Below, piece after piece: positions 1 through 29,469 of a stretch of 35,508 nucleotides of DNA. Location: NCBI GenBank assembly GCA_937922795.1, contig CALAJK010000030.1, positions 1 to 35,508 of the forward strand, given 5' to 3'. The DNA comes from an uncultured Anaerolineae bacterium. GTDB lineage: Bacteria; Chloroflexota; Anaerolineae; Aggregatilineales; Phototrophicaceae. The translations under genes and the position numbers were made by a program. Positions within the stretch are counted from its first letter, which is position 1, and every line of letters starts with the position of its first letter. The notes under the pieces were generated by a model. That model was given only the letters and a program-made list of their open reading frames with translations. It was not told the origin of the DNA and ran no database searches.

Positions 1-3000
1 GCAGATGACATCTCCGGCCTGCAGGTCGCCATCCTGGTTCAGCGGATCGCTGTGAGTCGGGAAATTACCGCGGCCGGTCGCCCGTCGGTAGCATACCCGG
101 AAGTCCACACCCGTGGTCGCCACCTGGGTCAGCAGCGAGAAGCCTGTGCCGTTGAAGGTGAAAGCTAGTTTGGCGCCGCGGCCGGCCGTGCTCAGCGGCG
201 AGCGCGCCTGCGTGCCGCCATAAGCGCGCGCGTTCTTCTGGCCAGTCGCCCAGGCCGCCGGACCTGTGCTGTCCAGCAGGCCGCCGTTGCTCACCAGGAA
301 GTCATCGTAGATGCCGGGGGTCAGCATCGTGCCATGCACCACCTGGAAGCCATCAATCCGGAAGAAACCGGGGGTGAGGGCGCGGAACGTCAGCCGCACG
401 TCGGCGGCGGCGCTGCCCAGCGCGGGCAGGTTAGCGCCGTTCAGCACCACCTGGTTGGCCGTATTCAGGTTAGTGATGACCGTGCAGTCTGTGCCGGACG
501 GGCCAGCCACTCGGTTGGCGCACACCAGCAGTTGGAGCGTGTTGGTGCTGGCCGCCGGCCCAGTGTACAGGATCACCGTCGCGCCGCCGGCGGGCACTTG
601 CAGCCGCAGCACGGCCGCTGGGCCGGCGTAGGTCGAGCTGATGCGCCGCGCGTTGTCCACCACGCCGACGTAGCTGCCGCCGCTGTAACCGCGCGCCGCC
701 GTGCCGGTGAAGGCGCTCCAGCGTTCTGCCGGGACTAGTCCCAGATATGGCTGGCCGCTGCCGTCGCGCGCGTCCTCGTTGTACAGGCCGGGCTGGGTGA
801 CGATCGGAGGCAGCGCCTCGCCCAGCACGCGCACATAGTCCACCACCAGCCGGGCCGGAGCGTAACGCGGATCGCGCGGCGGCACGCCGTCGTCCACATT
901 GCGCACGCGCACCCAGTAGTTGCCCGCCGTCAGGCCGGCCACCACCCGGCTGGAGAGGAAGTTGGCGCGGGTCGCCTGGTTGGTGTAGATGTAGCAGGCC
1001 TGACCGGTGAAAGCGGCGTTGTCCGCGTAGCACACTTCGACGTCGCCGCCGAACACGTCCTGCACCATACCGACCTCAAAGCCGGTCGCCCCGGTGATCC
1101 GGAACGCCAACTGCGCGTTCACCACGTTCGTCTGGCGCGCGCGCCGACCAGAATAGTTGGGCGAATACACCTCCACCCAGTCGGCGTCATAGCCCAGCGC
1201 CGGATGCACATCTTCGTACAGTCCTGGCGACAGCGCCTGCGTAGTGTTCACCACTTCCACAGCATCCAGGAAGACTGGACCGGCGCCCACTGTCATGATG
1301 CTGACGATATGCTCCGCCGTGTCGTCCGACTGGCCGGGGCCGCTGCCCGGCACTGACGGATTATTCAGGAACACCCGCACAGGCTGCTGGCTGCCGGTAG
1401 TTGCCGTGTTAGCGACCGGCGTGCAGAACCACTGCGTGGGCGCAGCAGCCGGGGCGGCGCACACCTCCAGTGGAGCGTGTCCCGGTCGCATATCACGGTA
1501 CAGGATGATCGCGTTGGCATTGTTCGTGCGGAAGACCACGCCTGCGCCGATGACATTGCTGATCGTATCATAGTTCTGGCCGGAGTACGCCCGCGCCGAC
1601 GTCCCTGATACTGACCGCCAACCGTTCCCATAGTACAGGAAACGGCCGTCAGCGGCGCGGTTGGCGAAGCTGGTCTCGTAACGCTGCCCTGGCGTGTTCA
1701 GCACGTTGGCCAACGGCGCGTCGTTGAAGATCTGCACCGCGTCGATCTGCATGGTGATCGGCGTGTTAGCTGGGGTATGCGGCAGCGGCGAGTTGTTGTC
1801 GGGCAGCATCTGCACCGAGGCCGTGTAATTGCCCTGCAGCAAACCGGCGATGGTGCGCGCCGCCTGGTAACGAACCGCGCTGCTCTCGTTGTCGTAGGTG
1901 CGGCAGACCGCGCCGTTGACGGTGTCCTGCGTCTGCGCCACTGTCCACCCCAGGCCGGCGCGCCAGCAGATGCGCACCGCGTCCGCGCGCGGATCGAGCG
2001 TGAAGAAGGCGGCGAAGCCGGTGCCATTGAACTCGAACCGCAGCGCGTCGTTGACCGTAGTCGTCAGGCGCACGGTGCCGCCCGATGCCCCGGCGACCGG
2101 CGTCTCCGTGAACGCGCCGCTGCTGAAGTCCAGCCCTGGATGATCATCTTCGTAGAAGCCGGCTGTCAGCACGGGTGTGGTAGTGAAGACTGGCCGCACG
2201 AAGTCCACCGGCATGGGTTTGCCGTCGGCGTTGCGCAGGAAGACCCAGCGCGTGCCGGCGCCGACCGCCGGCGCCGGCAGCGCCGACTGGCGGAAACCGA
2301 GCGGCGCGGCGGCATTGTTGATGACCGCCGGCGTCGTACAAACGGCCGAGTTCGTGCCAATCGCCGCCGAGCAGACATTCACCAGGCCGTAAGCGGCCAG
2401 CGTTTGGCGGACGTACTCGATGTTCGTGCCGGCGAAGCCGTTCAGCTCGAAGTAGGCCACCGAGCCGCGCATGCTGCCCAGGTGCTGGCTGCCGCCGGAT
2501 GCCGCCGCCGCCAGGGCTTCATTGAAGCTGAAGTACGGGAAGTACACGATGCGGCGATCGGTGTTTTCGACATTGCCGGTGACCGCGCTGCCGATCTGCT
2601 CCGGGACGCCGTTCAGGATGTCCACGCGGTCCACGACTAGCGGCCGGGTGAACGTCGGGCCGGGGTCAGCATTGGCCAGGCGCACGGTATACGTGCCGGG
2701 CGAGAAACCGACGTAAGTCAGCGCGAACGGCGCCCGCGCCGCGCTGGTCGCGGCGTTGGTCAAGGTGGTCAGCGGCATCGTGTCACACGATCCAGAATTG
2801 GAAGCCACTTCTACACACAGGCTGTACTGCGGGCTGGTCGCGGTGCTTTCCGCCAGCACAATGCTGAAGCCCGTCCCGGTGAAGGTGAACTCCAACGTCT
2901 GGCTGCCAGAAGCGGTGTTCGTGGCGCGCGCCAGGCCGTCGGTGGCGCCAGCGCTGGCCGCCGCGGGCAGCCAGCCCGCGCCGAACCGCGGCGCAAGCTG

Positions 3001-6000
3001 CGGATGGTTCTCCTGGTAGACGCCCGCCTTGAGCGCGCCGGCGCCGCTGGTGTCGTGCACGCCGATGGCGTCCACGTAGAAGTTCACCCCGGCAGTCAGG
3101 TTGGTGACGCTGACGAAGTAGTCGCCGGGCGTGGTCGGGTTGAAGACGAAAGTCGTGTTCTTGTTTGGCGCCAGGGACTGCGGCGGCAGGCAGGTGCGCG
3201 TGTAGGGCGGGATCGTCAGCGACGCGCACACCTGTACGCTGGTCGTCGTTGAGCCGCTGTGGTGCAGCGTGATCGCGTTCGCGTCGTCCACCGCGAAGTT
3301 CACCTGCGCTCCGATGTGATTCGTGAGCCGGTGCGTCTGGTTCAGATAGGCGCTGGCGGCGCTCCCGCTGCGGGTCGTCCAGGCGGCGTTGCCCGGCCCG
3401 AAGCGCAGGTAAGGACGACCGCTGGCATCGACTGCGGTATCGTCGAAGATACCCAGCGGCATGGCCGCCGCCGGGTAGTCGCCGTAGATTTCGACACCGT
3501 CCACCGTGAAGCGCTTAGCGTCCGGCTGCCGGACGGTGACCGTATACGTATCGAAGGGCAGACCGGTGACGCTGTGCGCCATGCCGTAGTATACCCGACT
3601 GTTGGCGCTGGTCGTGTTGACCACCTGGTAGTCGTTACCCGTCACCATGCCGTCAACTTCGATGATCAGACTGCCGGCTGCCGGCTCGAACAGCGTGAAC
3701 AGCGAGAAGCCCGTGCCGGTGAAGCGGAACTGCACCTGGGCATTAGCGGTGGTCGTCTGGTAAGCGCTGCGATCCAGATAGTTGGAGCCGAACACGTCGC
3801 GCCAGCCGTTGACCGCGTCCGCCACCGGCGTGTAGATCAGGCGCGGATCGCTCTCCGGGTACACGCCGGCCGTCAGCGGCTGTGCTGAACTCAGCAGTTC
3901 GACCGCATCCAAGTTGAAGATGCCGTTCGTCAGCGCGGTGATCGAGACGACATGCGCCCCGCTGCTGCTGAGCTGTACTTGGAACGGCGCTGACACGCCC
4001 GTGCCGCCGTCGTTCCGCAAGATGGCGCACTGGAACGGGTCGAAGTCATCCTCTGGCATCCAGCACACCTGCAGCGGCGCGTAGCCAGCGCGCACATCGC
4101 GGTAGATGCGCAGGATGTCGCCGCCGTTAGTGCGCAGGACGACGCCAGCGCCGACCGCTCGCGCCTGGTCATAGTTTTGGCCGGAGTACGACCGCGCCGC
4201 TGCGCCAGTGACTGACCGCCAGCCAGCGCCGAAGTATTGGAACCGGTTGTCGGCAAGACGGTTGGCGTAGCTGGTCTCCACCCGGACTGGCGGATCTTGC
4301 AGCGTCACCGGCGCTAGGCCGTCCCAGTTGACGCCGAAAATCTCCAGCGCGTCGAACTGCATAGTGTGGCCTTCGTAGCGCCGCAGCGCAGCGTTATACA
4401 CCCGATCAGCGCCGGCGTGCTGCACGACAGCCGTGTAAGTGCCCGGCTGCAAGCCGAGAATGCTGCGCGACGCCCGGTAGATGGCCGAACGACTGTTATT
4501 GTCGAACGTCAGACAGCGGCCGGTATTGACGACGTTCTGGATGAGCGTGCTGTCGATCGCCGCCGGCGGCACAGCGCCGTCTCGCAGCCAGCACACCTTG
4601 ACTGGGCCGCTCGCTGCGTCGGACGTGAAGCTCGGCGCGAAGCCCGTCCCTGTGAAGCGGAAGGCCATGCCGGCCAGCGCCTTGTTCACATTGATCTGAG
4701 TGTTGTTAGAGTACCGGGTGTTGGCGCGCGGCTCGCAGAACGTCGGCGGCGTGACGTTGGTCGTCGGGCAGGCCGCGCCAGGATACGGCATGATCAGATT
4801 GTAGGCCTGGTCGAAGTACTGCAGCCCGGCCACGTTCTGCTCATAGTAGCTGGGGTCGAGCGCCCGCGCGCTGTTGATGACCTGGATCGAGTCCAAGTTG
4901 AACGGCTGGTTGACCAGGCTGAAGATTTCGACGAAGTGGGTATCCACGCTCTCGCCTGCCCAGCGCCAGGCCGGCCCCCAAGTCGCGCTGGCGAAGTCGC
5001 TCCTGCGAATGACCAGCGGGTTGCTGTTCGCCGCCCGCAGATCGCGCTGGATGCAGTGCTTGGCCTGGTCACCGGGGGCGTCGCCGCGGGCGCGGTTCAC
5101 GCACACCAGCACCTGCTGACTGTCGGCTGAACCAGGCTGACGGAACCAGTAGATGGCATCAGCCGCTGCCGGCACGCGGAAGCTGATGAACGGCCCGGCG
5201 TTGTTGACGCCGCGCGCGATGGTCGTCAGGCTGCCGTTAGACGCGCGTGCGTTGTTGGTGTCGAGCAGCCACGAGTCATCGCGCCCACCCAGCGTGATGA
5301 TCGGCCCGCGCACATCATCTTCGGTCGTGCCGAAAGGCAGGGCGGCAGTGGGCGCTGCATCCAACACCACGATCGAGTCGATCACCAACCGCGCGCCCGC
5401 CGGGATGCTGAGGACATCCAACGTGGCGATATGCTCGACCGATGGATCGAAGCCGAAGAACGGTCGGAACACGCCCCAGACTGGGCTGGTGCCGGCCCCG
5501 ACAGCGTTGTTGAAATCCTGGCACACTGTATTGGTTGGCACGGCTTCGGGCGCTACGCAGATGCGGTACTGCGCGCCCTGCCCAGTAGTTCTGTTCCGCT
5601 CCAGCGTCGTGCCGATAGCCAGGCCGCTACCCTTGAAACTGAACTGGACGTCAGCGATGTTGGTGTTGGTCGTCGAGACGGCGCTGCCGTTGGCCGCGTT
5701 ACGGTCGCTGAACAGCGTCCAGCCGAAGAACAGCGGCAGCACCTGGCTCTCGTTCACGTAGTGCTTGCCCGGCAGCAGTACAGTGCTGTCGGTCAGAATG
5801 CCGATGGCGTCCACATTGAGCTGGCGCGCCTCGCGGTTGATGATGCTGACCATGTGCGCCTCGCCGGCGCGCAGCCGGGCGCAGGAAACAATGTATGCGG
5901 TCGTCCCACGCCCAGAGATGAATTTGCTGAAGTCAGTAGTCGAACTCTTGACGCCGGTAGTTGAAGAAGTCCGGCAGATCAGGCTGCCGCGAGTGGCCGT

Positions 6001-9000
6001 CTGCCGGCCGTCCCAAGTCAGCGGCAGGCCATCCACCTGCAGTTCCCACCAGCCGCCAGCGCTGCTGGCCTGCATATACAGCGCGAAACCGGTGCCGACG
6101 AAGCTGAAGTCGGCGCGGTCGCCCGACGTTGTTGTGCGGTGCAGCGTGTTATTGATATTCGGCTCGCTGTAGATGGGCGTCCAACCTGAACCGGTGTAGT
6201 CGAAGACGAAGCTGGTATCGTCATGTAGGCCGGTGTAGGGGAGCGAGCCGCGCACGGTTACCTCGACCGTGTGCTGCACGCTGCTGCTGCCCACGGTATA
6301 CTGGAATGAGAAAGTGCCGGTAGTGCCGCCGTTGGCGTTCAGCGTGACCAGGCTGTTGGTCACCGGGTTGCTGGCCGCCGCCAGCGCCGTTGTGATATCG
6401 CCCTCGCCTATGCCCAGCGCGACATAGTCGCCCGATAGACTGCCGCTCACATAACTGTAGGTGTACGGATAGTCTGCGCCCGGCGTCTGGTTCTGGGCGG
6501 GCGCGCCGCCGGCCCCCAACGTGTCCTCTGGGCCGCCGTCTTCCGAGAACAGGAAGTTGTCGTCAAAACTGACGTAGGGACGAATGCGGAACTGGATCAC
6601 CGTCGGCGCCGGCGCGGTCGCCGCCCCCACCTGGACGCGCTGCGTCAGCGGCTGGGTCAGTGCCGGGTCAGCCGCGCCAGTGCCGCGCAGGGTGATCGTG
6701 TTGGGCGCCGGGCTGATGTTGCCGCCGGCATCCACCACTCGATAGGTGAAGCTGGCCTGGGCCGCCGTCGGCGCGCCGATCGTGTAGTAGTTCTTCGGCG
6801 GGCAGTAGGTCACCTGGCCAGTGGCGGCGTTCACCTTCAGCGGCTGGCCGCCGCACAGATTACCCGGATTGACATCGTAGATGGCGGGCGGCGTGATGAT
6901 CTGGTAAGTGTAGGGCGGGAAGCCGCCGGTCACACTCAAGTTGTAATTGACCGACAGCGCATCCTCGGCGAAGTTCAAATCGCCGTCCTGGCCGCGCACC
7001 GTCACGAACTCATACGCGCCGATGTCGATCTGGCCGTTCTCCACGCGCGGACGGCCTAGCAGGTCGCCGCTGGCCAGCATCGCCGCCGTCAGCAGGCTTT
7101 GGTTGCCAGCGTCTACGCCTGCCGTGCTCACGCCTTTCAACTGGTAGGGATCGTTGGGCGATACTGTCGGTCCGACAAACTGCGAGTTCGGGTCGGTGAT
7201 CGGCTTGGGGTCTAATGTGACATTGCCGTTGACTGTTGGTCCGAGCGAATTCTGACACTCGCCGCTGATATCGCCGCTGAACGCATACCAGTTGTACTGC
7301 GCGCCATCGTCCGAGCCCGGCACACCGATGCGTTTACACGTCGTGACGATTGCAATGTCCGAGATGATGCCAGCAGTCGGCGAGTTGCTGTAGAACAGGT
7401 TATTGTGAATCTCCCACCCGCCGTCGCCATTGTTCCCATCGCTGTCGCCGCGGGCGATGATCAGGCCATAAACGGGGTCATCCATGCCGGTATTGCCGAC
7501 GACGGTATTGTTGACGAAATAGAAGCGCCGGCTGGGCCGCAGGTGAATGAGCGGCCCCGCGCCAGTATTGTCCTGAAATAGATTGCCAAACACCTGAATT
7601 TCTTTAGCGCCGGCGCCTTCCCCAACTGGATCGCCCGTATTTCTCACGCGCAGCGCCGACCGGGCGCCGTTCGCCACGAAGCGATTGTTGTATAGGTTGA
7701 CAACGCTTTCTGTGATCTGCACCACCGGCTCGGAGATGTCTGCGCCCAGTTCGGTCGAGTTGTTGCCGGTGAAGGTATTGCGCTGCACCAGAATAGCCGT
7801 CGAACTGCTAATCGTGATAGCTGCGCCGCCCCGGCTGTCGTTGCTCGAAAAGGTGCTGCCCTGCACCGTCACATTCTCGGCATTGCCGCCGATGATCACC
7901 GGCGGCCGGCCGCGGAACCCGGTGAACACGCTGTTCTGGATGATGGCGCCCGGAGTCAGTGAGGCGTCGTAGACCGTCACCGCATTTGGACGGTCGAACT
8001 GGACGTTCAGTGCGCCTGGCTGCAGCGGATTGGCCGAGCGAAATACCAACCCATCAATCACCGGATTGTTGCCTTCGATGGCGATGCCGGCTACGCCTTT
8101 ATAGGTGTTGTTCACCCAGAAGATGCTGTCCGGCGTGGACACAGACAGGCGGCCGCCGTTGGCGGCCGAGTCATAGGACTGCACGCGCACCTGCTGCGGC
8201 AGCGCGCTGGTGATGCCGATGCCCGATACATACTCGCCGGGGAACAGGATGACGCAGCCGCCCGCGCCGGCTGCGTTGATCGCTGGCGCGACATGGACGA
8301 ACGGGTTGGCAAATGTGCCGTAATTCGACGCCGTGAAGTTCGGCTCGCTGTACGGGTTCACGTACCGGCACATCGGGTTCACATCGGCGGCGGCGGCGGT
8401 CAGCGCTGCCTCCGGCCGCGGGCTGCCCAGCATCGCCAGCCCGGCGCCGTGCGCCATGTCGTAGCCGTCCGGCAGAGCGCCCAGATACAGATCGAGACTG
8501 TGCGCCTGCATGTAGTTGATGAGGCCCTGCGGCGTGCCAACATACGGGCTGAGAAACGCCGTATTATTGGAACGGATGAGCGCAGCCATGGCCGCCACAT
8601 TGGCCGCCGCCGCCGACGTGCCAGAAAAAACCGTGCCGTCGCTGGCGCATGAATTGGGATCCGCCACGGCATAGGTAGTGGTGACATTCGACGGCCCGAC
8701 CAGATCGGGCTTGAAGGCCGTCCGGGTAGCGAAAGGCCCGGCGCTGGGCGCGCCGCCGCCGGCCGAGAAGATCGGCCCGCGCGAGCTGTCTTCCAGCAGC
8801 GGGTAGGTCAGCTTCTCAGTCGGATTGGACACGTTAGCCAACTGCTGCCGCGCGCACACCGCGCCCACCGTCAGCGCGTGAGGCGAGTCGGCCGGGCGTC
8901 CCAGGCTGCTGGTGGTGTTCACATTGCTGATCGTGCCGCCGGTCGGTGTGCCCACCTCCCCGGCGCCAGTCACCTGCACCTGCACGTAGACCGACGCGAC

Positions 9001-11613
9001 GCCGCTCACGCCGGTGATGGACAGTGTGGGATTCGCTGTCAAGACGATAAACTGGTGGCTGGGCGTGCCGCTCCCGCGCCCGCCATACGGCAGCGCGCCG
9101 GTCAGCGACATGGTCAGATCGACATTGGGCGCGGTAGTGTCCCAATCGTTCCAGCTCACGTTGACGCGATCGCCCGGCTGCGCGGTGATCTGGATATTGG
9201 TCGTGCCGCCGCCGTAGGTGAAGCTGACGTAGCGGCCGAAGTTATTGCCGGCGCTGACGATCACCAGCCGGCCAGCGTTCCGAGCGTTTTGGATGTTGGT
9301 GTACAGGCTGACTGCATCTGGGTTGCTGCCGCCCGTGCCGTCGCCTGGGCTGACATTCGCGCCCAGATCCATCGTGATCAGGATGATGTGGTTGCCGGCG
9401 CTGCTGGCAGCGGAGACCCGGTTCGCCAACTGAGAAGCGGTCTCTGCCCGGTACAGCGTCAGCCGCGCGTTGGGCGCTAGATCACACAGCACCTGTGCCA
9501 CCTTCGTGCCGTGATTGCTGGAGCCCACCCCACTGAGACTGGGGGCATTGTTGACGGTGCGGCTGGGCAGGCAGGTAGTCGGCAGCTCCGCTGCCGGGAT
9601 CGTCGCGATGTCGGCGAAGCCAGTGTCGATGACGGCGATATTGGTGCCGCCGCCGGTGAAGCCGGCCAGATGCCAGTCATTCACCCCCAAGATATCGTAG
9701 CCTTCCGTCGGCGTCCCCGAATAGCTGGCGATGCTCTGGCTCGTGGGCGCGCCCGCCGAACTGGTCGAGGTGGCCAGCACGGCGAAGCGCATCCCCGCCA
9801 CCTGCGGCGCGTTGGCCAGCGGCAGCCGCGCCTCGACGCTGGTGTCATAGGTGTAATCCGCCGCGCCGCCGACCTGTGTCACCAGCGCCGCCAGCGTCGC
9901 GCCATCGGCGCCGTCGCTGGCCCAGATCGTGACTAGAACCCGGCCTTCGTCATCTAGCGGCAGAAAATAAGACCGCGCCAGGCTGAGCGCCCCGGCCTCG
10001 TCGCCGCTCAGATAGCGGTTGAGGATGGCGTCCATGCCGCCCGGCAGCCGGGCGATCTCGGCATCGCTGAGGGTGAACAGCGCCGGCGTGGGCGCAGCCG
10101 CAGCCAGCGCCTCAATCGGCGTCAGATCAAATACCCGAACATCATCCAGCATGAGCGTCCCAGCGGCCAGCAGCGCCAGCTGCCCAGCCGCCAACGCATC
10201 CGCCTGCTCGACCGTCAGCTCAGGAACACCGTTGACCGAGACGACCAGCGCCCCGCCTCGCGCCTCCAGCGCCAGCGTGTGCCAGGTGTTCAGCGCCCGC
10301 GCCGCCGGCAGGCTGGCGATAGGCGCAGCGCCTTCCCCATCATTGCGGAGCAGCGCCGCCTGCGCAGCAGACAGTGACAGCCCATAGCCGCGCCCGTCAA
10401 GCGTGCGGAAGGGCAGGTTCAGCCCGCCATCCGCCAGCAGCATCACCCGCGCCTCTAGCCGGAAATCGCCCAGCACCAGCGTCTCCGCCGGCAGCAGGCT
10501 CCCGCCAGCCGGGAGCAGCAGCGCGTGGTTGTTCCCCGCTTCGACCACGATGCTGGCATCAGCGCTCGGCAGCCAGCCGGTCGGCTCACCCTCAAAGTCG
10601 GCACTCAAGACCAACACGCCCTCCGGCTCCGGCTCGGAAGCGGGTGGTTCGACTGGCGCAGGAGCAACGGCCGGTTCATCGGTCACGATCGGCGCGGGCG
10701 TCGGCAGTTCGGGCGTGAGCGGCGGCTCGGTCGGGAGGACAGTAGGCAGCGCCGCCGTATCCGGCATCCGGATCAGTATCTGGTCGAAGCTCACGGCGCC
10801 GGCGCTGCTCGAACCCGTCTCCAGCGCCACCCAGCCGGGCGGCAGCGGCGCGACATCCTCGGTCACGATGACTGGGACGCCATCTACGCTGGCCGTCAGC
10901 GACCCGCCCGCCATCTGCACATTGACGGTACGCCAGGGCGGCAGGGCGTCCGCTGGCAGTTCAGGCACGGCTGGCCCCTGCGCCAACAGAGTATCATGCC
11001 GCCACAACGAAACACTGCCGTTCATGTCTAACGTCAGCGCGTAGCGGCCTGCTTCCCCCGCGCGCAGGGCGACCACAGCTTGACCCCCTGGCGCGACGCG
11101 CACGCGCACAGACAGCGCCAGATCGCCCAGCGTCAGACCATCTATCACCGCCGTCTCGCTGGGAGCCGAAGCCGTCAGCAGCCAGTTATCCCCTTCAACG
11201 GCAAGCTGCCAGCCTGGGCTGAGCTGCCATCCGGACGCGTCGCCATCTTGGAAATCGTCCAGGAAGATGACGTCTGCGGGGAGCGGCGTGGGCGCAGCCG
11301 TCGGGGCTTCGGTCACGACAGGCGCAGGAGTCGCCGGTTCCTCAGTGGGATCAACCGGCGTATCCGTTGGCGTCTCAGTCGCCGGCTCATCAGTCGGCGC
11401 GGCTGGCGCGTCCGTCGGCGGCTCAACTAGCGGCGCAGTCTCATCAGCGAGCGCAGGCGGCGCAGCGGGCGTCTCGGTCGGCCCGAACAGCGGCTGCGGC
11501 TCGTCTTGAGCGAGCAGGCCGGCGGCCGGCACGACGGCGTTGACCACCAGGGACAACACGGTCACCCAGGCGACCAAGCGGCTTACAAATGATTGGCGCT
11601 GTACGGAGTTCAT
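1..11613 (-). CDS. Giant secreted subtilisin-like (S8) protease with lectin, beta-helix and jelly-roll repeats (3' end outside window)
   Basis: One frame is open from the ATG at 11613 to the window edge (3871 codons, no stop), so the C-terminus is missing. A GGGAGGG ribosome site lies 5 nt before the ATG. Residues 1-35 look like a signal peptide ending GLLA, followed by a Pro/Thr/Glu-rich linker. Two concanavalin/LamG-like domains lie near 116-280 and 332-500, then a possible propeptide. The S8 triad is visible: D663 in AVIDTGF, H701 in SNHGTKV and S1000 in FSGTSAA, with N790 (SAGNN) as the oxyanion residue. Residues about 1130-1535 read as a right-handed parallel beta-helix with NN-rich turns, ending in DIGAYE at 1530. 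Two Ig/cadherin-like segments follow, then jelly-roll modules to the edge. It is probably an extracellular, surface-attached protease that binds glycans or matrix. The protease call is firm; substrate and anchor are unknown. Confidence 0.93.
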   Translation of the reverse strand, partial: MNSVQRQSFVSRLVAWVTVLSLVVNAVVPAAGLLAQDEPQPLFGPTETPAAPPALADETAPLVEPPTDAPAAPTDEPATETPTDTPVDPTEEPATPAPVVTEAPTAAPTPLPADVIFLDDFQDGDASGWQLSPGWQLAVEGDNWLLTASAPSETAVIDGLTLGDLALSVRVRVAPGGQAVVALRAGEAGRYALTLDMNGSVSLWRHDTLLAQGPAVPELPADALPPWRTVNVQMAGGSLTASVDGVPVIVTEDVAPLPPGWVALETGSSSAGAVSFDQILIRMPDTAALPTVLPTEPPLTPELPTPAPIVTDEPAVAPAPVEPPASEPEPEGVLVLSADFEGEPTGWLPSADASIVVEAGNNHALLLPAGGSLLPAETLVLGDFRLEARVMLLADGGLNLPFRTLDGRGYGLSLSAAQAALLRNDGEGAAPIASLPAARALNTWHTLALEARGGALVVSVNGVPELTVEQADALAAGQLALLAAGTLMLDDVRVFDLTPIEALAAAAPTPALFTLSDAEIARLPGGMDAILNRYLSGDEAGALSLARSYFLPLDDEGRVLVTIWASDGADGATLAALVTQVGGAADYTYDTSVEARLPLANAPQVAGMRFAVLATSTSSAGAPTSQSIASYSGTPTEGYDILGVNDWHLAGFTGGGTNIAVIDTGFADIATIPAAELPTTCLPSRTVNNAPSLSGVGSSNHGTKVAQVLCDLAPNARLTLYRAETASQLANRVSAASSAGNHIILITMDLGANVSPGDGTGGSNPDAVSLYTNIQNARNAGRLVIVSAGNNFGRYVSFTYGGGTTNIQITAQPGDRVNVSWNDWDTTAPNVDLTMSLTGALPYGGRGSGTPSHQFIVLTANPTLSITGVSGVASVYVQVQVTGAGEVGTPTGGTISNVNTTSSLGRPADSPHALTVGAVCARQQLANVSNPTEKLTYPLLEDSSRGPIFSAGGGAPSAGPFATRTAFKPDLVGPSNVTTTYAVADPNSCASDGTVFSGTSAAAANVAAMAALIRSNNTAFLSPYVGTPQGLINYMQAHSLDLYLGALPDGYDMAHGAGLAMLGSPRPEAALTAAAADVNPMCRYVNPYSEPNFTASNYGTFANPFVHVAPAINAAGAGGCVILFPGEYVSGIGITSALPQQVRVQSYDSAANGGRLSVSTPDSIFWVNNTYKGVAGIAIEGNNPVIDGLVFRSANPLQPGALNVQFDRPNAVTVYDASLTPGAIIQNSVFTGFRGRPPVIIGGNAENVTVQGSTFSSNDSRGGAAITISSSTAILVQRNTFTGNNSTELGADISEPVVQITESVVNLYNNRFVANGARSALRVRNTGDPVGEGAGAKEIQVFGNLFQDNTGAGPLIHLRPSRRFYFVNNTVVGNTGMDDPVYGLIIARGDSDGNNGDGGWEIHNNLFYSNSPTAGIISDIAIVTTCKRIGVPGSDDGAQYNWYAFSGDISGECQNSLGPTVNGNVTLDPKPITDPNSQFVGPTVSPNDPYQLKGVSTAGVDAGNQSLLTAAMLASGDLLGRPRVENGQIDIGAYEFVTVRGQDGDLNFAEDALSVNYNLSVTGGFPPYTYQIITPPAIYDVNPGNLCGGQPLKVNAATGQVTYCPPKNYYTIGAPTAAQASFTYRVVDAGGNISPAPNTITLRGTGAADPALTQPLTQRVQVGAATAPAPTVIQFRIRPYVSFDDNFLFSEDGGPEDTLGAGGAPAQNQTPGADYPYTYSYVSGSLSGDYVALGIGEGDITTALAAASNPVTNSLVTLNANGGTTGTFSFQYTVGSSSVQHTVEVTVRGSLPYTGLHDDTSFVFDYTGSGWTPIYSEPNINNTLHRTTTSGDRADFSFVGTGFALYMQASSAGGWWELQVDGLPLTWDGRQTATRGSLICRTSSTTGVKSSTTDFSKFISGRGTTAYIVSCARLRAGEAHMVSIINREARQLNVDAIGILTDSTVLLPGKHYVNESQVLPLFFGWTLFSDRNAANGSAVSTTNTNIADVQFSFKGSGLAIGTTLERNRTTGQGAQYRICVAPEAVPTNTVCQDFNNAVGAGTSPVWGVFRPFFGFDPSVEHIATLDVLSIPAGARLVIDSIVVLDAAPTAALPFGTTEDDVRGPIITLGGRDDSWLLDTNNARASNGSLTTIARGVNNAGPFISFRVPAAADAIYWFRQPGSADSQQVLVCVNRARGDAPGDQAKHCIQRDLRAANSNPLVIRRSDFASATWGPAWRWAGESVDTHFVEIFSLVNQPFNLDSIQVINSARALDPSYYEQNVAGLQYFDQAYNLIMPYPGAACPTTNVTPPTFCEPRANTRYSNNTQINVNKALAGMAFRFTGTGFAPSFTSDAASGPVKVCWLRDGAVPPAAIDSTLIQNVVNTGRCLTFDNNSRSAIYRASRSILGLQPGTYTAVVQHAGADRVYNAALRRYEGHTMQFDALEIFGVNWDGLAPVTLQDPPVRVETSYANRLADNRFQYFGAGWRSVTGAAARSYSGQNYDQARAVGAGVVLRTNGGDILRIYRDVRAGYAPLQVCWMPEDDFDPFQCAILRNDGGTGVSAPFQVQLSSSGAHVVSITALTNGIFNLDAVELLSSAQPLTAGVYPESDPRLIYTPVADAVNGWRDVFGSNYLDRSAYQTTTANAQVQFRFTGTGFSLFTLFEPAAGSLIIEVDGMVTGNDYQVVNTTSANSRVYYGMAHSVTGLPFDTYTVTVRQPDAKRFTVDGVEIYGDYPAAAMPLGIFDDTAVDASGRPYLRFGPGNAAWTTRSGSAASAYLNQTHRLTNHIGAQVNFAVDDANAITLHHSGSTTTSVQVCASLTIPPYTRTCLPPQSLAPNKNTTFVFNPTTPGDYFVSVTNLTAGVNFYVDAIGVHDTSGAGALKAGVYQENHPQLAPRFGAGWLPAAASAGATDGLARATNTASGSQTLEFTFTGTGFSIVLAESTATSPQYSLCVEVASNSGSCDTMPLTTLTNAATSAARAPFALTYVGFSPGTYTVRLANADPGPTFTRPLVVDRVDILNGVPEQIGSAVTGNVENTDRRIVYFPYFSFNEALAAAASGGSQHLGSMRGSVAYFELNGFAGTNIEYVRQTLAAYGLVNVCSAAIGTNSAVCTTPAVINNAAAPLGFRQSALPAPAVGAGTRWVFLRNADGKPMPVDFVRPVFTTTPVLTAGFYEDDHPGLDFSSGAFTETPVAGASGGTVRLTTTVNDALRFEFNGTGFAAFFTLDPRADAVRICWRAGLGWTVAQTQDTVNGAVCRTYDNESSAVRYQAARTIAGLLQGNYTASVQMLPDNNSPLPHTPANTPITMQIDAVQIFNDAPLANVLNTPGQRYETSFANRAADGRFLYYGNGWRSVSGTSARAYSGQNYDTISNVIGAGVVFRTNNANAIILYRDMRPGHAPLEVCAAPAAAPTQWFCTPVANTATTGSQQPVRVFLNNPSVPGSGPGQSDDTAEHIVSIMTVGAGPVFLDAVEVVNTTQALSPGLYEDVHPALGYDADWVEVYSPNYSGRRARQTNVVNAQLAFRITGATGFEVGMVQDVFGGDVEVCYADNAAFTGQACYIYTNQATRANFLSSRVVAGLTAGNYWVRVRNVDDGVPPRDPRYAPARLVVDYVRVLGEALPPIVTQPGLYNEDARDGSGQPYLGLVPAERWSAFTGTAARGYSGGSYVGVVDNARRISSTYAGPAAVLRLQVPAGGATVILYTGPAASTNTLQLLVCANRVAGPSGTDCTVITNLNTANQVVLNGANLPALGSAAADVRLTFRALTPGFFRIDGFQVVHGTMLTPGIYDDFLVSNGGLLDSTGPAAWATGQKNARAYGGTQARSPLSTAGRGAKLAFTFNGTGFSLLTQVATTGVDFRVCYRRATGRGNFPTHSDPLNQDGDLQAGDVIC
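1440..1690 (-). repeat. Duplicated module segment, copy 1 (partner at 4040-4290)
   Basis: This segment reads in frame as a type-2 module with the signature ARAYSGQNYD and YRDMRPGHAPLEVC. It aligns in both DNA and protein with 4040-4290 at an offset of about 2601 nt (867 codons). The two copies are clearly closer to each other than to other modules of the array, which points to a more recent internal duplication. Confidence 0.7.
4040..4290 (-). repeat. Duplicated module segment, copy 2 (partner at 1440-1690)
   Basis: It reads in frame with ARSYSGQNYD and YRDVRAGYAPLQVC, matching copy 1 almost residue for residue over this stretch. The preceding segment with W-R-S-V and E-T-S-Y-A-N-R is shared too. 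Offset from copy 1 is about 2601 nt. Confidence 0.7.
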
Positions 11614-28509: not shown

Positions 28510-29469
28510 TTGTCCACAAAACCAACTGAGCTTTCACGCCGGACGTTTCTGAAACGCCTGGGGATCTGGTTAGATGACCAGCCGCCAGACAACACCGGCA
28601 GTCCTGACCGTTCGCTGCCCTTCGAACCGCTGACGCCCATCTCGCAGTTTTATCGCCAGCAGCTCTACGGCGTCCCTCAACTTTCCGCCGCCGACTGGAA
28701 GCTGACGATCAGCGGCCGAGGGAGCAGCCTGAAACTGAGCCAAGCCGACCTGCTGGCGCTGCCAGCGGCATCGCTGCCGGCCACGCTGCTGTGCGCGGGC
28801 AGTCATCCCAACCATCCGCTCATCGGTACTGCCCTTTGGGAAGGCGCCTCTTTGGAGCAACTGTTGGAGACGGCGGGCGTCCATGGCCAGTATATCCACT
28901 TCATCGCCGCCGATGGTTACGCTGTGTCGCTCAGCCGCTCTCAGCTCTTCGGAGCCGTGATCGCCTACCGCATGAACGGCGATCCCCTGCCGGCGGCGCA
29001 TGGTTTTCCGGCGCGGCTGATCGTGCCTGGCGTCTATGGTTACAAACAGCCGAAATGGATCCGGCGCATTGAGGCGGCTGATACGCCGCTGAGCGGGCAC
29101 TGGGAAGCCCAAGGATGGCCCGCTGACGGCGAGCCGCTGCCGATGGCCGCCATACTTCACCCACACGCGGCGGACACCCTGCACGGCGAGATCATCCTGG
29201 TAGGCATCGCCTACGCCGGGCGGCGCTCACTCGACCGCGTCGAGATCAGCATAGACGACGGCGATTGGCAGCCAGTGCCTTTTGAGCGCTATGCCCAGGG
29301 CTGCTGGTCGGTCTGGCAGTCGCGCTGGACGCCGCCGGCGCCCGGCCAGTATGCAGCCCGTGTGCGCGCCTTCGACGAGGCAGGCCGTGCATCTGTCCCA
29401 TCCGCGCCCGCCGCATTTCCCGGGGGCCTGCCCGACTATCCGTCTGTCATCCTGCGCGTTATCGCCTGA
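28510..29469 (+). CDS. Sulfite-oxidase-fold molybdopterin oxidoreductase (YedY/MsrP-related)
   Basis: The 319-residue protein uses a TTG start with a GAGGTGA site 6 nt before it. It opens with SRRTFLK, the twin-arginine motif, but the following residues (RLGIWLDDQPPDNTG) are not hydrophobic, so the export signal looks incomplete. The Mo-binding domain carries the ligand Cys95 in TLLCAGSHPN, then LIGTALWEGASL and GFPARLIVPGVYGYKQPKWI, all typical of the family. A C-terminal Ig-like dimerisation domain (ISIDDGDWQPVPF) follows. No heme domain is present. Relatives oxidise sulfite or reduce methionine sulfoxides in the envelope. No MsrQ-type membrane partner is nearby. A Tat-type neighbour gene and thiol-redox genes follow. 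Confidence 0.9.
   Translation: MSTKPTELSRRTFLKRLGIWLDDQPPDNTGSPDRSLPFEPLTPISQFYRQQLYGVPQLSAADWKLTISGRGSSLKLSQADLLALPAASLPATLLCAGSHPNHPLIGTALWEGASLEQLLETAGVHGQYIHFIAADGYAVSLSRSQLFGAVIAYRMNGDPLPAAHGFPARLIVPGVYGYKQPKWIRRIEAADTPLSGHWEAQGWPADGEPLPMAAILHPHAADTLHGEIILVGIAYAGRRSLDRVEISIDDGDWQPVPFERYAQGCWSVWQSRWTPPAPGQYAARVRAFDEAGRASVPSAPAAFPGGLPDYPSVILRVIA

What the first reader, a model, noticed from the sequence alone, without database searches (positions are those of the whole stretch)
1..11613. Uninterrupted reading frame of at least 3871 codons with an unusual protease domain order
One minus-strand frame is open over 11.6 kb and combines two lectin-like domains, a complete S8 catalytic domain (D663, H701, S1000, N790), a parallel beta-helix ending in DIGAYE, Ig-like segments and a long jelly-roll array. 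Putting a protease before a beta-helix and about 14 adhesive modules suggests a giant cell-surface or matrix enzyme. I do not know a named family with this full order.
Basis: partly seen in the sequence, partly recalled or inferred. Interest (0 to 1): 0.72.

Follow-up and report, generated by a model that had tools for sequence, protein, structure and literature searches.

The report
Giant secreted protease with binding-module stalk
One family of uncultured environmental bacteria encodes a giant, probably secreted protein of about 4,000 amino acids that joins a protein-cutting enzyme to a long chain of sugar-binding-like modules; each part is of a known sort, but the assembly had no name in the libraries searched.

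Summary
One minus-strand frame is open for 3871 codons (chance about 10^-46) and is cut only by the contig end; relatives suggest about 200 residues are missing. Order: signal peptide, Pro/Thr-rich linker, two LamG-like domains, prodomain, S8 protease with intact Asp/His/Asn/Ser and an inserted beta-sandwich, beta-helix, Ig-like segments, then 14 modules of about 145 aa. In 22 of 154 genomes of the order (window included), all in one family, prodomain, protease and helix lie in one frame; 21 of the 22 also carry the array. In three close congeners every window module best matches the module of equal rank; in other genera rank is not kept. Sites are under purifying selection, and arrays run to the last residue, so no C-terminal anchor is seen. 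A module pair folds confidently as jelly rolls of the kind found in carbohydrate enzymes. Protease-then-helix is known from subtilase autotransporters, a jelly roll inside a subtilase from Csp proteases. Best reading: a secreted, prodomain-gated subtilase held on surface or matrix glycans by its module stalk; that function is inferred. Real, lineage-specific, a new variant of a known kind.

The parts
1..11613 (-). Giant ORF, 3871 codons visible; about 200 C-terminal residues lie beyond the contig end, judged by orthologues
11506..11613 (-). Signal peptide, residues 1-36 (hydrophobic 19-mer, mean 2.1; no lipobox Cys)
   Evidence: cleavage site by eye
11272..11505 (-). Pro/Thr-rich linker without Lys/Arg, residues 37-114
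   Evidence: P+T 0.42 for residues 36-120
10762..11271 (-). LamG-like domain 1, residues 115-284 (PF06439 best stretch 123-282)
10126..10620 (-). LamG-like domain 2, residues about 332-496 (one search counts two PF06439 stretches; limits of the second by eye)
9766..10071 (-). Subtilase prodomain-like region, residues about 515-616
   Evidence: profile aligns with the long subtilisin E chain 3whi_A from profile position 41; that this chain holds the propeptide is recalled; low-confidence strand-helix-strand-strand pattern
8329..9708 (-). Peptidase S8 domain, residues about 636-1095, with D663, H701, N790, S1000
8905..9237 (-). Beta-sandwich inserted after the oxyanion Asn, residues about 793-903
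   Evidence: profile positions 265-375 have no counterpart in subtilisin BPN'; seven strands, medium confidence
7009..8256 (-). Right-handed beta-helix, residues about 1120-1535, ending DIGAYE
   Evidence: NF041518 below its cut-off
6244..6993 (-). Ig-/cadherin-like segments, residues about 1541-1790
   Evidence: by eye; no Pfam match above cut-off
1..6243 (-). Array of 14 jelly-roll modules: m1 5782-6243, m2 5344-5781, m3 4864-5343, m4 4309-4863, m5 3880-4308, m6 3466-3879, m7 3037-3465, m8 2602-3036, m9 2173-2601, m10 1708-2172, m11 1237-1707, m12 808-1236, m13 328-807, m14 1-327 (cut)
   Evidence: limits set by eye on a start motif

Best explanation
The gene encodes one Sec-exported giant enzyme. 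The prodomain and the beta-sandwich inserted in the catalytic domain fold and hold the subtilase in a latent, self-cleaving form, as described for Csp proteases. The beta-helix and Ig-like segments act as a spacer. The stalk of jelly-roll modules (14 visible, 15 expected from orthologues), helped by two LamG-like heads, binds glycans of the cell's own envelope or sheath, or of the surrounding matrix, and keeps the protease at or near the cell surface without a membrane or sortase anchor. Shown: one gene, part order, catalytic residues present, predicted module fold, no C-terminal anchor in relatives, rank-by-rank conservation among close congeners, purifying selection. Inferred: export, activity and latency, glycan binding, location, substrate.
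For: Signal-peptide-like N-terminus; elsewhere in the window protein the highest 19-residue mean is 1.65. Cysteines are even in number in 264 of 265 modules, the exception being the cut window module: 197 hold two, 14 four, 53 none; this fits disulfides made outside the cell. Of 31 rows from 28 genomes, Asp is kept in 27 of 27 rows that cover it, His in 25 of 27, Asn in 25 of 26, Ser in 26 of 28, both Ser misses being the two pieces of the broken G028 gene. Module-pair model pLDDT 92.4, pTM 0.90; best fold matches include xanthan lyase, GH101, ColG s3as3b, Xyn30D and XynJ. Fold matches of the protease region are led by CspC and CspA, whose jelly roll interrupts the subtilase domain (PMC3567191, PMC6636752, passages). 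Equal-rank best match for 14, 14, 14 and 13 of 14 window modules in L038, L040, L057 and L042. Filaments of Flexifilaceae carry attached cells, and adhesion in such sludge Chloroflexota is called unclear (PMC10746286, passages); that the window belongs to that family is my inference.
Against: No ligand, activity or location is shown. The protease-helix model is of medium confidence (pLDDT 65.9, pTM 0.68) and its TM to Csp is low (0.21-0.22 by query length). Fold matches of the pair are two-domain alignments with rmsd above 10 A and also include Cry toxins, meprins and Elapor1, so only a jelly-roll class is supported, and many jelly rolls bind no sugar. 53 of 265 modules have no cysteine, 34 of them among the 50 modules of L046, L047, L049 and L050. 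Rank is not kept outside the window's clade: L046 of the same genus 2 of 14, L043 1 of 14, L048 5 of 14. Pfam sees the beta-helix in only 2 of 18 relatives; in the rest it rests on alignment with the window. Neighbouring genes give no functional clue.
Confidence: 0.5

Rival explanations
1. Mainly a structural surface or sheath fibre: the module array is the working part and the protease only matures the protein itself, or is dispensable.
For: In G005/G006 the three array blocks covered have lower dN (0.017, 0.054, 0.013) than the protease-helix blocks (0.090, 0.092, 0.087), though dS is lower there too. A sister clade (G018, G028) has Arg for the catalytic His. Rank of modules is kept among close congeners. 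The identity of the outer layers of a Chloroflexota envelope is called unclear (PMC13319060, passages).
Against: The same clade has no array (L052 and L056), the opposite of what an array-only function predicts. Asp, His, Asn and Ser are kept in all other rows that cover them. In G005/G007 array dN reaches 0.102.
Confidence: 0.25
2. A degradative scavenging protease that binds insoluble polymers through its modules, like collagenase with its collagen-binding domains.
For: ColG tandem collagen-binding domain among the fold matches; Ca. Flexifilum is listed as a heterotroph using amino acids (PMC10746286, passages).
Against: Fifteen modules of kept rank in close congeners are more than polymer binding should need. 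At 1e-40 two matches in one genome occur only in G028 and G104 (split genes) and G093 (protease-only matches).
Confidence: 0.2
3. Assembly or frameshift artefact joining unrelated genes.
For: The contig ends inside the array, and arrays break contigs in other assemblies (G006 and G014 have their array on two contigs).
Against: Continuous orthologous frames in other assemblies, one of them (G024) on a 2.7-Mb contig; dN/dS well under 1 along the frame.
Confidence: 0.01

Closest known systems
Subtilase autotransporters (Ssp of Serratia marcescens)
   Same: S8 subtilase directly followed by a right-handed beta-helix, secreted (PMC9977779, passages read).
   Different: No C-terminal beta-barrel seen in relatives; adds LamG-like heads, an inserted sandwich, Ig-like segments and the array; helix of about 415 residues against 248. 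Chloroflexota are considered monoderm, though some tomograms show a diderm envelope (PMC13319060, passages).
Csp proteases (CspB, CspA; pseudoprotease CspC)
   Same: Prodomain, subtilase and a beta-sandwich inserted in the subtilase; best fold matches. As with CspC, a clade here lacks the catalytic His.
   Different: No sequence kinship found in the PDB searches made (none at E<=1; subtilisins only at 1e-7). Csp are spore-germination proteins; no helix or array is described in the passages read. PMC6636752 says the insertion appears unique to Csp; this family suggests otherwise.
Jelly rolls of carbohydrate-active enzymes and collagenase (xanthan lyase, GH101, Xyn30D, XynJ, ColG s3a/s3b)
   Same: Predicted fold of the repeated module. 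CBM family numbers for these would be recalled, not tested.
   Different: No Pfam match above cut-off in the window's array and no PDB sequence at E<=1. In relative L046 one DUF2846 match just passes (35.0 against 34.3) and CE2_N just misses (27.5 against 27.9); among 25 pairs, Pur_ac_phosph_N matches 3 (best 3.7e-6) and fn3 4.
S8-plus-modules protein of G040 (L096:4687-10041, 1785 aa), another family of the order
   Same: Signal, Pro/Thr-rich linker, S8 with an insertion, then five A/B-profile modules to within 2 residues of the end.
   Different: No LamG-like or beta-helix match in Pfam up to E=5. The helix was gained or lost between protease and array.

Membership tests
Peptidase S8 (subtilase) | PF00082 above gathering score | tested here: met
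   50.7 bits against 21.8; 18 of 18 relatives at 0.01, although the whole L046 protein listed none up to E=5
Peptidase S8 (subtilase) | Asp/His/Ser triad and oxyanion Asn in order | tested here: met
   D663, H701, N790, S1000
Subtilase autotransporter | Subtilase followed by beta-helix | tested here: met
   Pfam sees the helix in 2 of 18 relatives
Subtilase autotransporter | C-terminal beta-barrel translocator | tested here: not met
   arrays reach the last residue in 15 of 15 and 7 of 8 stop-ended frames (the eighth 2 residues short); the window's own C-terminus is missing
Csp protease | Jelly roll inserted in the subtilase domain | tested here: inconclusive
   the insertion is clear, its fold comes from a medium-confidence model
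Csp protease | Sequence kinship to CspA/B/C | tested here: not met
   none at E<=1; only subtilisins at 1e-7
Csp protease | Prodomain stays bound after self-cleavage | not testable with these tools
   needs protein
Choice-of-anchor Q proteins (NF041518) | NF041518 above its cut-off | tested here: not met
   19.8 against 25 bits
Choice-of-anchor Q proteins (NF041518) | A C-terminal anchoring signal (recalled as usual for the name) | tested here: not met
   no LPxTG-like motif and no hydrophobic tail in 16 relatives with arrays
Carbohydrate-binding module | Jelly-roll fold of the kind in carbohydrate enzymes | tested here: met
   (fold class only; other jelly rolls match too)
Carbohydrate-binding module | Binds a carbohydrate | not testable with these tools
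   needs a binding assay

The most novel reading that the evidence does not exclude
The giant is a main building block of the unidentified outer layer or sheath of these Chloroflexota: a self-tethered stalk of 15 jelly rolls, mostly disulfide-stapled, carrying a clamped, prodomain-gated protease at its far end that trims or polices the layer. Protease activity and array are functionally coupled, since the one clade found without the array also lacks the catalytic His.
Probability: 0.15. Interest if true: 0.75.

Novelty: new variant of a known kind. Interest (0 to 1): 0.45.

Why it matters
It gives a concrete candidate for the surface-adhesion or envelope-layer machinery of an uncultured group where that machinery is described as unclear (PMC10746286, PMC13319060, passages). 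It suggests that a beta-sandwich inserted in a subtilase is not confined to Csp proteases, and it describes a large array of a module with no curated family matching it in the window. A natural contrast exists: relatives without the array also lack the catalytic His.

Tried and rejected
Rejected: artefact. Sortase anchoring: the genome has three sortase matches, but none of 18 relatives has an LPxTG-like motif in its last 80 residues; the window's own C-terminus is missing. Functional operon: conserved neighbours are DUF2344 upstream (5 of 22 loci, window included) and, downstream, a PsuG-type gene (9 of 22; Pfam run on two) and a PfkB gene (6 of 22; Pfam run on one), which look like housekeeping genes at a shared location. 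Recent tandem duplication of all modules: not within the window's clade (equal-rank matches); insertions are probable between genera (17-18 modules in L045, L051, L053, L055; 10 in L067). Viral or mobile origin was not tested; the one viral-collection scan failed.

Led nowhere: self-BLAST of the whole protein found only itself. Paper searches on giant proteases or surface proteins of the group gave one relevant paper (PMC10608941, passages), on the sortase fusion, found none. 'No name found' rests and these paper searches only.

Caveats: A/B seeds were picked by eye from the window, so the window's A/B string is not independent, and the retrained profiles blur the two types in other genera. 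Less dependent support: 12 of 13 modules m2-m14 have their best within-protein match at the same parity. The tree (quick method, several long branches, midpoint root) does not make the window's genus one clade: G003, G004, G013 and G016 group elsewhere. In one search, G110 is in two rows, G028 and G104 in two pieces each. One search left out G008, G002, G083, one G104 piece and the duplicate G110 row. One search searched with one peptide pattern only.

Full report
What is there. The window is a whole contig, C30, of a 127-contig genome that is 85% complete. On its minus strand a frame runs from ATG at 11613 to base 1 without a stop, 3871 codons. At the window's base composition such a run has a probability near 10^-46.5. 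The contig ends inside a module. Orthologues L040 and L057 go on for 205 residues after the aligned point, L038 and L042 for about 200, so the complete protein should have about 4,075 residues. A search of the own genome with the C-terminal part of L040 found only the window's own gene.

Domains. Pfam gives PF00082 at 655-1022, PF13229 at 1208-1371 and PF06439 in two stretches, all above their cut-offs. The choice-of-anchor Q model falls below its cut-off. D663, H701, N790 and S1000 sit in canonical contexts, and a family profile aligns with subtilisin BPN' around them. After the oxyanion Asn come about 110 residues that subtilisin lacks. In the predicted model they form seven strands (pLDDT 65.9, pTM 0.68), and the top fold matches are CspC and CspA, in which a jelly roll of about 130 residues interrupts the subtilase domain and touches the prodomain (PMC3567191, PMC6636752, passages). 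PDB searches by sequence list no Csp. I therefore say that it looks like a Csp-type insertion, not that it is a Csp protease. Among 18 relatives Pfam finds S8 in 18 but the beta-helix in only 2 at 0.01; in the others the helix rests on alignment with the window.

The array. From residue 1791 the protein is 14 modules, 13 of 138-185 residues and the last one cut. Profiles made from them find 12-19 modules in each of the 15 stop-ended array proteins, and in all 15 the last module ends at the last residue; a stricter score cut gives 12-18 there and 10 in L067. Seven further stop-ended frames also end flush, and L096 ends 2 residues short. Two subtypes alternate in the window: 12 of 13 modules m2-m14 have their best internal match at the same parity, and the two subtype profiles are related (probability 97.2). 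Cysteines are even in number in 264 of 265 modules, but 53 have none. A predicted pair (m10-m11, 25-row alignment) has pLDDT 92.4 and pTM 0.90. Its fold matches, 133 at E<=0.001, are led by jelly rolls of carbohydrate-active enzymes and include collagenase, Cry toxins and meprins. No PDB sequence matches the pair profile at E<=1. Pfam matches among 25 pair members are scattered: fn3 in 4, Pur_ac_phosph_N in 3, best 3.7e-6. In relative L046 DUF2846 just passes its cut-off inside the array and CE2_N just misses.

Relatives. 30 of 61 genomes, the own included, match the protease-helix region at 1e-3. At 1e-40, 32 of 154 order genomes match; 31 are of the window's family. Of these, 22, the window included, span prodomain to helix in one frame, in 11 genera; six (G002, G008, G019, G028, G083, G104) are partial or split; three (G025, G091, G093) match in the protease part only. 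The family has 98 held genomes in 24 genera, so most of it was not seen to have the gene. Of the 22, 21 carry modules in the same frame; the exception is G018. In an even sample of 400 genomes of the phylum, 7 match at 1e-40 and only G000 and G030 cover the helix. The pair profile matches 20 of 98 family genomes at 1e-20 and, in a phylum sample of 201, only the window's own genome at 1e-8. The genome-contig scan gave 24 loci: 18 titled Chloroflexi, Anaerolineae, Anaerolineaceae, Anaerolineales or, once, Aggregatilineales; the other 6, from other phyla, match the protease part only. NCBI lists Candidatus Flexifilaceae under Aggregatilineales. That the window belongs to that family is my inference.

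Evolution. In three congeners 14 of 14 window modules match best the module of equal rank; in a fourth, 13 of 14. Outside this clade rank is not kept: L046 2, L043 1, L045 3, L048 5 and L067 5 of 14. dN/dS is 0.08-0.34 in 18 of 18 blocks of two close pairs. G018 and G028 group together (SH-aLRT 100), have Arg for the catalytic His and no modules; G028 is also broken in frame near the Ser. This can be a single event. G040 of another family has S8 and modules without a helix match.

Function. Signal peptide, lack of anchor, jelly-roll fold, paired cysteines and kept catalytic residues together favour a secreted protease tethered to glycans by its stalk. This is inference; see rivals. Giant genes are comparably more common in Anaerolineae and often encode surface proteins (PMC10608941, passages); Flexifilaceae filaments carry attached cells, with adhesion called unclear (PMC10746286, passages); the identity of outer envelope layers is unclear in a studied Chloroflexota member (PMC13319060, passages).

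Verdict. Real, conserved in part of one family, built of known parts in an order not found under a name in the libraries searched. The protease-helix order has a precedent in Ssp (PMC9977779, passages). New variant of a known kind, interest 0.45.

Noticed in passing
L100:1532-14917 (G000:C112), same genome: A second giant frame of 4462 codons: SdrD_B, SpaA-like and DUF11 matches, then LPVTG, hydrophobic segments and a C-terminal sortase domain (PF04203 over cut-off), all in one protein: an adhesin that seems to carry its own sortase.
   Followed up: partly
L096:4687-10041: S8 protease followed directly by A/B-type modules, with no beta-helix match, in a different family of the order.
   Followed up: partly
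L052:4951-11313 and L056: Array-less relatives (G018, G028) with Arg in place of the catalytic His; the L056 gene is split between two frames.
   Followed up: partly
window:33608-35506 (-): Pro/Thr-rich protein of at least 632 aa, open at the contig end, with short tandem repeats in its DNA and no Pfam match at 1e-4.
   Followed up: no
window:30460-32064 (+): DsbD-type membrane domain fused to an AhpC/TSA-thioredoxin domain, with a molybdopterin oxidoreductase gene nearby at 28510-29469.
   Followed up: no
L046, L047, L050 neighbourhoods: Members of the same genus with the giant gene at another location: shared neighbours, by Pfam on L046 a PMT_2 membrane protein, a DegT aminotransferase and a glycosyltransferase. 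L046 and L050 (G016, G004) fall with G003 and G013 outside the window's clade in the gene tree; L047 was not in the tree.
   Followed up: partly
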